A DNA stretch of 64,000 bases from a virus. A program made the position numbers and the translations under genes. Positions 36,985 through 47,819 of the stretch are shown here, piece by piece. Within the stretch, counting starts at the first letter, position 1. The number at the start of each line of letters is the position of its first letter. The stretch lies in IMG/VR virus record IMGVR_UViG_3300042907_001518, positions 36,502 through 100,501 of that record. One strand, written 5' to 3'. Under the pieces are notes generated by a model that saw only the letters and a program-made list of their open reading frames with translations, ran no database searches and was not told the origin of the DNA.

Positions 36985-37074
36985 TCCGAGGGTGGAGATA
37001 ATGATATTTTTGTTGATGGAATTAATATAACAGAAATAGTCAAGGAATTACTACAGGACAGACTATTCGTATGA
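36985..37074 (+). pseudogene. Fragment of the 30,538 gene
   Basis: Start-less frame reading NDIFVDGINITEIVKELLQD then RLFV, matching the C-terminus of the 30,538 product (VVNGININETIRKLLSDRLFV). It ends in TGA overlapping the next ATG just as at 30,693, so a block of the array was duplicated and lost its 5' part. Confidence 0.6.
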
Positions 37075-37277
37075 CTTTCCAACAATTTTTAAACAAAGTA
37101 GATGCTACATATAATGCTCATCCATTTGAGTTAAGATATGGTCAAACAGTTATGAATGTATTGTATGATGCTTGGCCCGATAAATATAAACAAATATCTG
37201 GTGGAGACTACGATTGTTTTTATGATGATGGTACAGTTATATTGACTCTAGAATTCTTAGAAAAGGAATGGATATGA
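37071..37277 (+). CDS. Small protein, paralogue of 36,158
   Basis: 68 residues: TFQQFLNKVDATY, RYGQTVMNVLYDAWPDKY, DYDCFYDDG, LEKEW. Starts at the same overlap that 30,693 uses. Confidence 0.75.
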   Translation: MTFQQFLNKVDATYNAHPFELRYGQTVMNVLYDAWPDKYKQISGGDYDCFYDDGTVILTLEFLEKEWI

Positions 37278-40869: not shown

Positions 40870-41047
40870 TATTACTGGATTAATTTATCACAAAGAAGAT
40901 ACTACAAAACAAACTATTTTTATGAACGAAATAGTTTCAGCACTTTGCGAGTCTGAGGCTAAATTAGTATTTCATAAACAACTTGAAAAGCAATATCAAG
41001 TAGTTAAAGTTTACTCTATTGAAGAAATTCTTAAAGAAGTGGCTTGA
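40856..41047 (+). CDS. Small protein, 63 aa
   Basis: [14 protein letters not shown], helix [18 protein letters not shown], then strand [15 protein letters not shown]. Overlaps ThyX by 14 bp. Not recognised. Confidence 0.65.
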
Positions 41048-41071
41048 CAATGGCCGATAATCTGATATACT
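41044..41071 (+). promoter_or_regulatory. Promoter
   Basis: -35 TTGACA overlaps the preceding stop; 16-nt spacer with GCCGATA; -10 TATACT. Confidence 0.85.
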
Positions 41072-41088
41072 GTGATCAAGGAGATTCT

Positions 41089-42006
41089 ATGAACAGATAC
41101 GGTCTTTGCTGCATTAGTCTTAAACTTAAAGAGCAGGGTTTTAGTCATCAGACTATGACCTATAAGCGTTTTAGTTCACTACCAAGAGAACAAGCACTAG
41201 AGATTCTTGGTAGTAGAATTCAAAACAATCTCATGGTTACAGATAAGACTATCGAATTCTGTGCTGAAAATAATTATGTTTATCGTGTTAGTAGCGATAT
41301 TTTTCCATTAATTACTTATGATGAAGCGAATGTCAAACTGGAGGACTTGCCTAATTATGACGCTATACAAAATGAGTTTACGAATATTTCACAAACTATT
41401 TCCCGCACTGGCGTCAGGGTTTCTAGTCATCCTAGCGAATTTAATGTATTGGCTTCGATGAATGATAAGGCTGTTGACAAAACTATTATTGAACTAAATT
41501 TCTATAGTTGGTTTTTTGATCGTATTGGATTACCAGCAAATTATGACGCACCAATGAACCTTCATGTACATAATAAAAATGGAACACACTCTGAAATCAT
41601 TGATAGATTTATTCAAAATTTTAATCGTCTTGATCCTAATTGTAGGAGCAGATTGGTTATTGAAAATGATGACAAAGTTAATTGCTGGAGCGTAAGAGAA
41701 CTCATCACTCATTTTCATCCCAAAACAAATATCCCCATCACCTTCGACTATTTGCATCATAAGTGTAATCAGGATATTCTAGAAGAAGAAACTGCTATCA
41801 AGGCTTGTCACGATACTTGGCATGGATATAAACCGCTTTTTCACTACAGCGAAAGTAAACCGGGCAATAATCCGCGTGCTCATGCTGACTACGCAGAAAA
41901 TCCTTTTAATAACTATGGATTAGAATTTGATATTGACTTTGAACTGAAAGCCAAAGACTATGCTATAGAACATCATGTTGAAATTTGTAAAGGAGTAATT
42001 GTATGA
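41089..42006 (+). CDS. UV DNA damage endonuclease (UVDE family)
   Basis: 305 residues. RYGLCCISL start, VRVSSHPSEFNVLAS, MNLHVHNKNG, RLVIENDDKVNCWSV, TFDYLHHKCN: the ordered TIM-barrel metal-site blocks of UVDE. Nicks 5' of UV photoproducts. The ATG at 41089 follows AAGGAGATTCT and the promoter; the frame is open upstream through the promoter, which is not coding. Confidence 0.9.
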   Translation: MNRYGLCCISLKLKEQGFSHQTMTYKRFSSLPREQALEILGSRIQNNLMVTDKTIEFCAENNYVYRVSSDIFPLITYDEANVKLEDLPNYDAIQNEFTNISQTISRTGVRVSSHPSEFNVLASMNDKAVDKTIIELNFYSWFFDRIGLPANYDAPMNLHVHNKNGTHSEIIDRFIQNFNRLDPNCRSRLVIENDDKVNCWSVRELITHFHPKTNIPITFDYLHHKCNQDILEEETAIKACHDTWHGYKPLFHYSESKPGNNPRAHADYAENPFNNYGLEFDIDFELKAKDYAIEHHVEICKGVIV

Positions 42007-42806: not shown

Positions 42807-43025
42807 ATGAACTGTATTTACTGTAAAAATTGCGTTGGGATGGATCGTTATCAATTTCTGATAGAGACCAATCGTAAAATTATTTGTAGAGAATGTTCTA
42901 CAGAGAATAAAGCGGTAGGGTTTATGAATTATTCCCATAAAACCGCACCAGACTTGGTTGTTTGTCCCGCCAACGCTAAAGAAAGCCTGCGTATTTTACA
43001 CAGAGCAAATCGTCGTGCTAGATAA
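42807..43025 (+). CDS. Small zinc-ribbon protein, 72 aa
   Basis: CIYCKNC and CRECS knuckles, then a basic end (HRANRRAR). GGGAGACATACTA ribosome site. Ends convergently with the antisense HNH gene (8-bp overlap). Confidence 0.7.
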   Translation: MNCIYCKNCVGMDRYQFLIETNRKIICRECSTENKAVGFMNYSHKTAPDLVVCPANAKESLRILHRANRRAR

Positions 43026-43650
43026 TTTTATCTGATTTTCTTATGTTGTCTTTAGCCCATAGTGGTTGTAGATTTGTAAAGTGAAAACAAAGTTTTTGTT
43101 CAGACTCTAAACTTAAATCAAAACTAGCACATGGTTTAATATGATCTATATGCCACTTGCCATAATTTTTCCAACTCATACCTTTTGTAAACTGTTTTTC
43201 TAAATAAATTTTTAATTCTTCTATAGAACATCCAAGCAAATCTAATGATGTAGAATATTTTGAACTACGTTTAATGGCTTTAGTTATACGTCCCCTAAGT
43301 AATCTGACTAATCTGTAGTTTAAATCCTCATAATATTTTTTATTAGCATACAATCTATTTTTAATTCTTAAACTATCTTTATGTTTTTGTTTATACTTCT
43401 TAGCACGTTCTTTTGATTTTTCATGATTATTATAGTATGATTTTAAACGACTTTTACGAACACTTTCTATATTGTTATTTTTCCATTTATCATGAATTTT
43501 TTTGTCTTGTTTGGGGTTGTTTTGTCTCCATTCTCTATTTATAATAGTATAACAACTACGACAATAAACACACTTGCCGTCTTTTTTAGCCTTATTATTA
43601 CTGAAATCGCTCAGATCTTTTTCGATCTTACATTTAACGCACGTTTTCAT
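43018..43650 (-). CDS. HNH homing endonuclease (antisense insertion)
   Basis: 210 residues, paralogue of 32,193: CVKCKIEKDLSDFSNNKAKKD, CVYCRSC, Lys-rich linker, then KWHIDHIKPCASFDLS and NLQPLWAKDNIRK. ATG at 43650 follows AAGGATTGGT. Opposite to the operon, with back-to-back promoter region at ~43,655-43,690. Confidence 0.9.
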   Translation of the reverse strand: MKTCVKCKIEKDLSDFSNNKAKKDGKCVYCRSCYTIINREWRQNNPKQDKKIHDKWKNNNIESVRKSRLKSYYNNHEKSKERAKKYKQKHKDSLRIKNRLYANKKYYEDLNYRLVRLLRGRITKAIKRSSKYSTSLDLLGCSIEELKIYLEKQFTKGMSWKNYGKWHIDHIKPCASFDLSLESEQKLCFHFTNLQPLWAKDNIRKSDKII

Positions 43651-43658
43651 ACCAATCC

Positions 43659-43686
43659 TTGACTTTACGAGACTATCAGATATAAT
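43659..43686 (+). promoter_or_regulatory. Promoter
   Basis: -35 TTGACT, 16-nt spacer, -10 TATAAT; restarts rightward transcription past the HNH gene. Confidence 0.7.
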
Positions 43687-43734
43687 CAACATACACCGAT
43701 TGGATACAGAAAACCAATATTTTAGGACGCAAAT

Positions 43735-45654: not shown

Positions 45655-45683
45655 TTGACACTGTTGTGTCGATCATGTATAAT
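45655..45683 (+). promoter_or_regulatory. Promoter for tRNA-Ile
   Basis: -35 TTGACA, 17-nt spacer with GTCGATC, -10 TATAAT, 8 bp before the tRNA. Confidence 0.8.
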
Positions 45684-45691
45684 ACAATCAT

Positions 45692-45765
45692 GGGGCGTTG
45701 CCGCCGGTAGTGGCACATACTCTTATAAGGTATTCAAAAGGTTGGTTCGACTCCAACACGCCCTA
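45692..45765 (+). tRNA. tRNA-Ile (TAT)
   Basis: Acceptor GGGGCGT/ACGCCCT, anticodon stem ATACT/GGTAT with loop CTTATAA, T-arm GTTGG-TTCGACT-CCAAC. Reads ATA; a T34 anticodon avoids the need for lysidine on a CAT anticodon. Confidence 0.9.
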
Positions 45766-45780
45766 TTAAGGAGACTATAA

Positions 45781-45990: not shown

Positions 45991-46154
45991 TGTACTAACT
46001 TAGAAGGGTGCGTAAAGGTTTCGACTACATAGATAGAATTATATTAGCAAGTAGTGGTTGATCTAAGGGCCACTAGTTGTTTGGTGTTTCTTTAAAAATT
46101 TTACCCGATCAAAACCCGATTTGGTGTATTTCACTTTACAATCAAACTCTGGTG

Positions 46155-46163
46155 AGATCAAAT
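46155..46163 (+). repeat. 9-bp direct repeat, left copy
   Basis: AGATCAAAT just before the endonuclease ATG; identical copy at 46,709-46,717. Together they bracket the insertion in the tmRNA gene. Confidence 0.7.
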
Positions 46164-46164
46164 T

Positions 46165-46704
46165 ATGGAGGATTTAGTTCAAAAAATATCAGAAGAATAT
46201 CTTAGCGGCTTAAGTATACATAATATAGCCAAAAATCATAATTTAAACTACAGTTTTGTAAGATATCATTTGGTAAAAAATAATGTTTATAAGCCAAATT
46301 CTAAATTCAAAAAGAATGGCAAAATTACTTGTAAACTTTGTAATAAAAAATATCCTGAAAAAGATATGCCAAAAGATTATCAAAGGTCTGGTAGAAGATT
46401 ATGTAAAAGTTGTCTTGGTAGACATCAGTTAAAATACAATATGAAGAAACTGGGAACAACAACAGAAGTTTATGATGAACTATATTTAAAACAAAATGGC
46501 ATGTGCGATATTTGTGGTAATAATATTGGCCATAAAACAGCAAAGGGTTTGGATGCAAAATTAGCACTAGATCATTGTCATAAAACAAATAAAGTTCGTG
46601 GCTTATTATGTAATAAATGCAATAGATGTCTAGGATATGTAAATGATGATTTGAACTATCTCCAAAATATGTTAGAGTATTTAAAGAAACACCAAACAGA
46701 TTAA
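46165..46704 (+). CDS. Endonuclease VII-like homing endonuclease inside tmRNA
   Basis: 179 residues. N-terminal helix-turn-helix (SGLSIHNIAKNHNLNYSFVR), a zinc knuckle CKLCNKKY/CKSCLG, then YLKQNGMCDICGNN, LALDHCHKTNKVRGLLC and CNRCLGYVNDD, the recombination endonuclease VII pattern. Such enzymes cut branched or site-specific DNA and spread genes by homing. Confidence 0.9.
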   Translation: MEDLVQKISEEYLSGLSIHNIAKNHNLNYSFVRYHLVKNNVYKPNSKFKKNGKITCKLCNKKYPEKDMPKDYQRSGRRLCKSCLGRHQLKYNMKKLGTTTEVYDELYLKQNGMCDICGNNIGHKTAKGLDAKLALDHCHKTNKVRGLLCNKCNRCLGYVNDDLNYLQNMLEYLKKHQTD

Positions 46705-46708
46705 AAAT

Positions 46709-46717
46709 AGATCAAAT
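46709..46717 (+). repeat. 9-bp direct repeat, right copy
   Basis: AGATCAAAT directly before the tag's first codon; matches 46,155-46,163. Confidence 0.7.
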
Positions 46718-46756
46718 GCTTTAACTGGCAATACTCAGTTAGCACTTGCTGCTTAA
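46718..46756 (+). CDS. tmRNA proteolysis tag reading frame
   Basis: GCT starts a 12-codon frame ALTGNTQLALAA followed by TAA. The ALAA end matches the ClpXP degradation signal of bacterial tmRNA tags. The resume codon is inferred; a later GGC or GCA is possible. There is no ATG, as expected for tmRNA. Confidence 0.7.
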   Translation, partial: ALTGNTQLALAA

Positions 46757-47003
46757 TTAAATAACAGCAACAATCTTAGAAAGCGATGAAGGTAGCGTTC
46801 AAAAGATTGATGTAAAATCCTTCGGCTGCTAGGATAGCCAACGGGTTCTAGCCTGAGACTAGTTGGTACGGGAAGATGAATGTTGTTTGTTCTTTAATCT
46901 TTCTCAAAATTTATGAACATAATAAACTTGTAGAATGTATAGTTTGATATATGCTAGGACGCGGGTTCGATTCCCGCCGCATCCACTTAATGAAAGGTAT
47001 AAT

Positions 47004-47162: not shown

Positions 47163-47819
47163 ATGGGTAATTATCTTAATGTAGATATACCAATATTTAT
47201 TGCATATTTAGATACAAGTTTTTTTTATAATAAATCTCCAGACATAAATGCTGAAAGAATACCTGTAGAAGTTTTTAGTTTTACAAGTATACCACAAAGA
47301 TGTGGCTTGTTTTCGATAATGACAGAATATGGTAGTCAACACGCTAGAGTGCCTATTCATTATCTTAGAGCCAATAATCAGAGTGGTGGTTCTGACTATC
47401 CTTTGGATTGGCTACAATTATGGGACAGCATGAGTTATTATGCAAGCGTTAATATAAATCAATATACTAAAAATAGAGCAGCAAATATTCTGATTAAAAA
47501 TAAGACGCTACATAAAGTTAAATATCTATTTACAATAGATTGGTGTTTAGGCCCACAATATGAAAATGGATACGGTGAAATGGCCGCTGGGCATAAGTGT
47601 GGTCATTTTTTTGAAGGTAGCGATGGGCAATATTTTATACAGCCAAATAATAGAGTTTTATGGATGGATGGCGGTGCTTTTATCAGTAAAAAATTTGATA
47701 ATAAACCAGACTGGAAAGTATTTAGTCAAGAATTTAGTTGTGAAAATACTGGTAGTAGATGGGTAAGCGAGAGTGACGAAGAAATGTATTTCTATGAATT
47801 TAAAGAAAAAATGGATTAA
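47163..47819 (+). CDS. Hypothetical protein, 218 aa
   Basis: DIPIFIAYLDTSFFYN, VEVFSFTSIPQRCGLFSIM, HARVPIHYLRAN, DWLQLWDSMSYYA, then GHKCGHFFEGSDGQYFIQPN and NRVLWMDGGAFI. Mixed alpha/beta with many aromatic residues; the YFIQPNNRVLW block suggests a beta domain. Not recognised. Confidence 0.65.
   Translation: MGNYLNVDIPIFIAYLDTSFFYNKSPDINAERIPVEVFSFTSIPQRCGLFSIMTEYGSQHARVPIHYLRANNQSGGSDYPLDWLQLWDSMSYYASVNINQYTKNRAANILIKNKTLHKVKYLFTIDWCLGPQYENGYGEMAAGHKCGHFFEGSDGQYFIQPNNRVLWMDGGAFISKKFDNKPDWKVFSQEFSCENTGSRWVSESDEEMYFYEFKEKMD

What the first reader, a model, noticed from the sequence alone, without database searches (positions are those of the whole stretch)
46006..46985. Phage tmRNA gene split by an endonuclease VII-like gene immediately before the tag codons
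Both tmRNA ends, the T-arm and a tag ALTGNTQLALAA are intact, but 554 bp including a 179-residue homing-type nuclease lie between the 5' domain and the resume codon. The insert is bracketed by a 9-bp direct repeat AGATCAAAT, and cutting one repeat plus the insert leaves a normal 426-nt tmRNA. Group I introns in tmRNA T-loops are known; an insertion at the resume site is, as far as I know, not. Either it is spliced, or processed to a two-piece tmRNA, or the tmRNA is disabled.
Basis: partly seen in the sequence, partly recalled or inferred. Interest (0 to 1): 0.9.

Follow-up and report, generated by a model that had tools for sequence, protein, structure and literature searches.

The report
Nuclease gene hidden inside phage tmRNA
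A phage's ribosome-rescue RNA (tmRNA) carries a homing-type nuclease gene inside one of its folded loops, closed off by the insert's own long hairpin, so the rescue RNA probably still works, either cut into two pieces or with the hairpin left in; no other tmRNA of this kind was found.

Summary
About 100 relatives with an empty ~355-nt tmRNA show that ~625 nt (about 46,075-46,700) sit inside loop L3 of pseudoknot PK1, not next to the resume codon. The downstream AGATCAAAT belongs to native PK1 stem S2; the upstream copy lies inside the insert. The tag is GNTQLALAA.

The insert is an endonuclease VII-type ORF plus a ~90-nt leader. A perfect 19-bp helix joins its ends; 2,000 leader shuffles never exceeded 14 bp. 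It is predicted to fold almost independently of the tmRNA: 2.4 insert-flank pairs, against 16-79 for shuffled inserts and 20-89 for related nuclease genes. The flanks keep 73 of 73 consensus pairs of the relatives. No group I or II match was found.

Best explanation (inferred, no RNA data): it behaves like the intervening sequences of 23S rRNA. RNase III would cut the terminal helix and leave a working two-piece tmRNA; retention uncut is the main rival. A cut would also strip the nuclease ORF of its stop codon, making it a tmRNA substrate. A curated set of 97,179 tmRNAs reports introns only in the T-loop. This is one metagenomic contig.

The parts
45655..45683 (+). Perfect sigma-70-type promoter match (TTGACA-17-TATAAT) ahead of tRNA-Ile, a small ORF and the tmRNA
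   Evidence: 12 of 12 matches; a consensus match, not proof of use
46006..46074 (+). 5' segment of the tmRNA: acceptor 5' strand 46006-46012, H2 5' strand, PK1 S1 (46053-46057 with 46070-46074) and S2 5' strand TTGATCTA (46058-46065)
   Evidence: alignment to ~80 distinct empty relatives; PK1 covariation
46075..46700 (+). Insert in loop L3 of PK1, about 625 nt, borders +/-2 nt
   Evidence: absent from all relatives
46078..46103 (+). 5' arm of the terminal helix (19 perfect bp 46078-46096, one mismatch, 6 more bp)
   Evidence: pair probabilities 0.76-1.0 apart from the mismatch
46673..46698 (+). 3' arm of the terminal helix; also codes the C-terminus of the nuclease
46151..46155 (+). GGTGA, Shine-Dalgarno-like, 9 nt before the ATG
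   Evidence: read from the sequence
46155..46163 (+). Upstream AGATCAAAT copy inside the insert; could pair with S2 5' strand over 7 bp, but such pairing would cross the terminal helix
46165..46704 (+). ORF, 179 aa, endonuclease VII-type (HNH-like) homing-type nuclease; domain at residues 93-175; stop codon 46702-46704 lies in the native L3
46701..46707 (+). Rest of native PK1 loop L3, TTAAAAA
   Evidence: conserved in relatives
46708..46715 (+). PK1 S2 3' strand TAGATCAA, pairs 8 bp with 46058-46065 across the insert
46727..46756 (+). Tag reading frame GNTQLALAA with stop TAA; resume codon GGC at 46727
   Evidence: ARAGORN; same place in relatives
46716..46985 (+). 3' segment of the tmRNA: tag, H5, further pseudoknots, H2 3' strand, T-arm 46961-46977, acceptor 3' strand 46978-46984, discriminator A

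Best explanation
A phage tmRNA has been invaded by an endonuclease VII-type homing gene at loop L3 of pseudoknot PK1, and the insertion is tolerated at the RNA level. Shown by sequence and prediction: the insert lies between the S1 and S2 3' strands of PK1; a 19-bp perfect terminal helix joins its ends; it is predicted to fold almost without pairing to the tmRNA; the flanks keep every consensus pair of the relatives. Inferred: host RNase III cuts the terminal helix as in the intervening sequences (IVS) of 23S rRNA, without ligation, leaving a 5' and a 3' piece held together by the acceptor stem, H2 and PK1 S2, i.e. a working two-piece tmRNA from a gene in standard order. Also inferred: any cut on the 3' arm separates the nuclease ORF from its stop codon (46702-46704), so the excised nuclease message is non-stop and becomes a substrate of tmRNA itself.
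For: Empty relatives in the same place. PK1 covariation fixes the insertion point. Terminal 19-bp helix: no leader shuffle of 2000 exceeds 14 bp, and 38 related nuclease loci reach at most 11 bp. Insulated fold: 2.4 insert-flank pairs vs 16-79 in 16 shuffles and 20-89 for 12 other nuclease genes. Flanks keep 73/73 consensus pairs. Same anatomy as the Coxiella 23S IVS: 28-bp terminal stem, ORF in the hairpin, excision by RNase III (PMC4990558). 23S IVS are harmless cut or uncut (PMC8708148). E. coli PK1 can be reduced to a hairpin or made single-stranded with tagging kept (PMC4236655). Two-piece tmRNAs are functional in nature (PMC3985003).
Against: No RNA data; cleavage, ligation and tagging are all untested. 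One contig only. The phage record has no RNase III or SmpB gene by Pfam search, so host enzymes are assumed. The insert is longer than typical 23S IVS. A recent insertion could also leave the flanks intact without function.
Confidence: 0.5

Rival explanations
1. The insert is not removed: the mature tmRNA is the ~980-nt RNA, with the insert as a long hairpin sticking out of PK1.
For: The terminal helix keeps S1, S2 and the tag in place without any cutting, and the insert hardly pairs with the tmRNA. Unprocessed 23S IVS are tolerated (PMC8708148).
Against: A 19-bp perfect duplex is an expected RNase III substrate, and ribosomes translating the ORF would open the helix and cover the S2 3' strand (inference).
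Confidence: 0.22
2. The nuclease gene has simply disabled the tmRNA; the phage lives without it and the host tmRNA is enough.
For: The host presumably has its own tmRNA; many homing nucleases disrupt genes; one contig only.
Against: All 73 consensus pairs are intact, the insert is in a tolerant loop, its ends are complementary over 19 bp and it avoids pairing with the flanks; a disabled gene needs none of this.
Confidence: 0.13
3. The insert is a self-splicing intron of a very divergent or unknown type, giving a ligated ~355-nt tmRNA.
For: Strong folding of the whole insert (z -9.5; codon-preserving z -6.2). With borders 46075-46699 the last base before the insert is U and its last base is G, as group I introns require; this is weak, since the borders are uncertain by about 2 nt.
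Against: No group I or II match even at permissive E-values; the ORF fills ~86% of the insert and its stop codon lies outside, leaving ~90 nt of non-coding sequence; the ORF body alone is only moderately structured against other window ORFs.
Confidence: 0.1
4. Assembly chimera: an unrelated nuclease fragment was joined into the tmRNA by the metagenome assembler.
For: A single contig; no second copy of the junctions in the collections scanned.
Against: Both junctions fall in the same loop with no loss of flank, the ORF is intact, and the two ends of the insert are complementary over 19 bp; a chimera predicts none of this.
Confidence: 0.04

Closest known systems
Intervening sequences (IVS) of bacterial 23S rRNA, e.g. 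Coxiella burnetii
   Same: Insert in a structural RNA, complementary ends forming a long stem (28 bp in Coxiella), ORF inside the hairpin; 23S rRNA works in pieces (PMC4990558, PMC8708148)
   Different: Here tmRNA and a phage; the ORF is an endonuclease VII-type nuclease, not S23p; the stop codon lies outside the helix; excision is untested
Group I intron tmRNA genes
   Same: Interrupted tmRNA gene; some introns carry homing endonuclease genes (36 of 883, LAGLIDADG type in the founding set; PMC11915505)
   Different: All known introns are in the T-loop and have a group I core; here PK1 L3 and no core found
Permuted two-piece tmRNA (alpha- and beta-proteobacteria, cyanobacteria)
   Same: Would also be a tmRNA in two base-paired pieces (PMC3985003)
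   Different: Gene order here is standard; the break would lie in PK1, before the tag
Phage genes split by homing nucleases (Aeh1 nrdA with mobE, T4 gene 60 with mobA)
   Same: Nuclease insertion splits a phage gene whose product can still work in pieces (PMC2988022)
   Different: There two polypeptides; here a structural RNA with a closing hairpin
Insertion sequences with GIY-YIG ORFs in rRNA genes of CPR bacteria
   Same: Homing-type ORF in an insert of a structural RNA gene that matches no intron model (PMC11270868)
   Different: rRNA, GIY-YIG family, bacterial chromosomes; removal not worked out

Membership tests
tmRNA | tRNA-like domain: 7-bp acceptor with G.U third pair, T-arm with TTCGANT loop | tested here: met
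tmRNA | Resume codon, tag ending in hydrophobic LAA, stop codon | tested here: met
   GNTQLALAA
tmRNA | PK1 upstream of the tag | tested here: met
   S1 5 bp, S2 8 bp across the insert; covariation in relatives
tmRNA | Works with SmpB in trans-translation | not testable with these tools
   no SmpB in the phage record; host unknown
IVS of 23S rRNA (as a kind) | Complementary ends forming a long terminal stem | tested here: met
   19 perfect bp plus 6
IVS of 23S rRNA (as a kind) | Excised by RNase III without ligation | not testable with these tools
   needs RNA
IVS of 23S rRNA (as a kind) | Located in 23S rRNA, often with an S23p ORF | tested here: not met
   tmRNA; Pfam finds Endonuclease_7 and a weak HTH only. 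So it is not filed as a 23S IVS, only as working like one
Group I intron | Conserved catalytic core (P3-P9) | tested here: not met
   no match in the insert
Group II intron | Conserved domain V / Rfam match | tested here: not met
   no match at E up to 5
Permuted tmRNA | 3' part of the tRNA domain precedes the 5' part in the gene | tested here: not met
   standard order
Homing endonuclease gene | Endonuclease domain intact | tested here: met
   PF02945, E 2.2e-19; PDB matches to Hpy99I and T4 endonuclease VII. Activity untested
Homing endonuclease gene | Cuts the empty allele at the insertion site and is copied into it | not testable with these tools
   empty alleles exist in relatives; cleavage unknown

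The most novel reading that the evidence does not exclude
A nuclease-encoding IVS-like element that turns a standard-order tmRNA into a two-piece tmRNA through RNase III, with a feedback loop: cutting removes the nuclease stop codon, so the nuclease message becomes non-stop and its product is tagged by the very tmRNA that the cut creates.
Probability: 0.3. Interest if true: 0.9.

Novelty: new variant of a known kind. Interest (0 to 1): 0.74.

Why it matters
tmRNA genes are known in three forms: standard, group I intron in the T-loop, and permuted. This would be a fourth: a standard-order gene interrupted in PK1 by a nuclease-coding, hairpin-closed insert. It would extend the IVS way of tolerating inserted DNA from rRNA to tmRNA, show a non-splicing way for homing-type nucleases to live inside RNA genes, and be a natural test of whether tmRNA tolerates a break in PK1. 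Loss of the stop codon on excision would tie the expression of the inserted gene to the rescue system it sits in.

Tried and rejected
Direct repeat AGATCAAAT as insert boundary: rejected; the downstream copy is native PK1 S2 and relatives fix the insert elsewhere. Group I/II intron: no match. Permuted tmRNA: gene order is standard. A family of hairpin-flanked nuclease cassettes: 38 nuclease relatives show no comparable inverted repeat, and the five exact hits of the 19-mer have no inverted partner in their loci. Other insert-bearing tmRNAs: two scans of viral contigs for a non-empty PK1 L3, from the 5' and from the 3' side, gave only empty genes; a scan of bacterial genomes gave one locus (L306), not examined further. 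Cultivated relatives of the tmRNA: only T-arm matches. Structure of the ORF body as evidence of a ribozyme: weak when synonymous shuffles of other window ORFs are the yardstick. One relative (L270) entered alignment A1 with wrong coordinates; A1 was not used for any count.

Full report
What is there. The window is part of a 100,501-bp IMG/VR virus record. A perfect sigma-70-type promoter match (45655-45683) precedes a tRNA-Ile(UAU), a small ORF and a tmRNA gene that runs 46006-46985. ARAGORN recognises the 3' part and the tag GNTQLALAA. Rfam's tmRNA model gives 33 bits, below its cut-off of 47 (E 3.5e-11), presumably because the gene is interrupted.

Where the insert really is. The 218-aa protein just downstream (47163-47819) led to close relatives in viral contigs. 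Many have a tmRNA in the same syntenic place with a similar tag, only ~355 nt long. In about 100 loci (82 distinct full-length sequences) the PK1 region is uninterrupted. The alignment puts the extra ~625 nt of the window between CCACT (46070-46074, 3' strand of PK1 stem S1) and TTAAAAA (46701-46707, rest of loop L3), just before TAGATCAA (46708-46715, 3' strand of stem S2). S2 pairs 8 bp with TTGATCTA at 46058-46065, across the insert. PK1 in this group is well supported: on 26 distinct sequences 97.3% of cells pair, with 62 double-change cells against 19 in shuffles and a covariation score of 0.537 against 0.188, reached by 0 of 500 shuffles; sliding the partner strand destroys it.

What the insert is. 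It is ~90 nt of leader with a Shine-Dalgarno-like GGTGA, plus an ORF of 179 codons whose stop codon (46702-46704) already lies in the native loop. The protein has an endonuclease VII domain (PF02945, E 2.2e-19) and matches Hpy99I (E 2.9e-7) and, weakly, T4 endonuclease VII among solved structures. It is the only such domain in the record.

The terminal helix. Positions 46078-46096 and 46680-46698 are perfectly complementary over 19 bp, with six more pairs after one mismatch. In 2,000 shuffles of the leader the longest perfect match to the insert's end was 14. In 38 related nuclease loci the longest match between the upstream region and the ORF end was 11. So the helix is not a habit of this nuclease family.

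Insulation. In the full 981-nt RNA the acceptor stem, T-arm, PK1 S1 and the terminal helix are predicted with probabilities mostly above 0.9, and only 2.4 of 308 expected pairs join insert and flanks. With 16 dinucleotide-shuffled inserts this number is 16-79, and with 12 other endonuclease VII-type genes put in the same place 20-89. The insert folds better than dinucleotide shuffles (z -9.5; -7.0 with different borders) and than codon-preserving shuffles with the leader kept (z -6.2). The ORF alone is only moderately special: z -4.8 with 60 shuffles and -3.2 with 25, second of 38 window ORFs. The strong signals are therefore the closing helix and the separation from the tmRNA. The folding program does not model pseudoknots, so PK1 S2 itself rests on comparison, not on these probabilities.

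Is the tmRNA alive? A consensus structure computed from the relatives alone has 73 pairs; the window's flanks form all 73, against 98.5% on average for the relatives. This fits continued selection, or a recent insertion.

How it probably works. IVS elements of 23S rRNA have the same anatomy: a terminal stem (28 bp in Coxiella), an ORF in the hairpin, and excision by RNase III without ligation (PMC4990558); ribosomes work whether the IVS is cut or not (PMC8708148). In E. coli tmRNA, PK1 can be reduced to a hairpin or replaced by single-stranded RNA and tagging persists (PMC4236655), so L3 is a tolerant place. Two-piece tmRNA works in Caulobacter (PMC3985003). I infer RNase III cleavage and a two-piece tmRNA held by the acceptor stem, H2 and PK1 S2. 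A further inference from coordinates: any cut in the 3' arm parts the nuclease ORF from its stop codon and makes the excised message non-stop; and a ribosome ending translation at 46702 would cover the S2 3' strand, so translation and tmRNA folding exclude each other on one transcript. None of these steps has RNA evidence.

Unexplained. The leader holds two GATCAAA copies (46107, 46156) that echo the native S2 strand; 0 of 500 shuffles of the insert had two in the first 90 nt, and a stretch of the leader resembles native L3-S2 (21 of 1000 shuffles score as well). They may be remnants of target duplication, alternative partners for S2 during transcription, or parts of the nuclease's recognition site.

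What is known. A curated set of 97,179 tmRNA sequences lists three main gene forms, with all 883 intron forms interrupted in the T-loop, and its authors warn that introns at other sites may have been missed (PMC11915505). I found no report of an IVS-like or PK1 insertion in tmRNA in the papers searched; subscription journals are mostly not held. I call it a new variant of a known kind: IVS-like in anatomy, but in a tmRNA and with a homing-type nuclease.

Limits. One contig, no reads, no RNA. The tools warn that records very near the window may be left out of the collections, so 'unique' means unique in what could be searched.

Noticed in passing
L128, L187, L194, L199, L287, L288, L189, L226 (empty tmRNAs of relatives): These tmRNAs have a T-loop GGCAGNA instead of TTCGANT with acceptor 7/7 intact and the T-stem 5/5 in six of them (4/5 in the fixed frame used for L189 and L226), and the same ones carry AATAGNNTCGA or AATTAGAATCGA instead of AAAGGTTTCGA near the 5' end, which looks like covariation between the T-loop and the D-like region.
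   Followed up: partly
46107-46113 and 46156-46162: Two GATCAAA copies in the insert leader echo the native PK1 S2 strand; also TTAAAAAT at 46092-46099 and 46701-46708. Meaning unknown.
   Followed up: partly
L082, L085, L086, L087, L090, L103 between tmRNA and the 218-aa gene: Other nuclease-like (HNH or endonuclease VII-like, read by eye) ORFs sit directly behind the tmRNA in relatives, so the tmRNA neighbourhood looks like a landing zone for such genes.
   Followed up: no
45691-45766 (+): tRNA-Ile with anticodon UAU behind a perfect promoter; Rfam's tRNA model does not list it at the gathering score, while tRNA-Sec matches below threshold (25.7 vs 47 bits).
   Followed up: no
43018-43692 (-): ORF with CxxC pairs and an HIDHIKP stretch, HNH-like by eye, but no Pfam match at E 0.1.
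   Followed up: no
41044-42006 (+): UV-damage endonuclease (UvdE family, E 6.1e-42) gene in the phage.
   Followed up: no
37001-37164 (+), G000:C1:73502-73665: Very weak group I intron match (11.7 bits, E 0.11), the only one in the record and outside the insert; probably chance.
   Followed up: no
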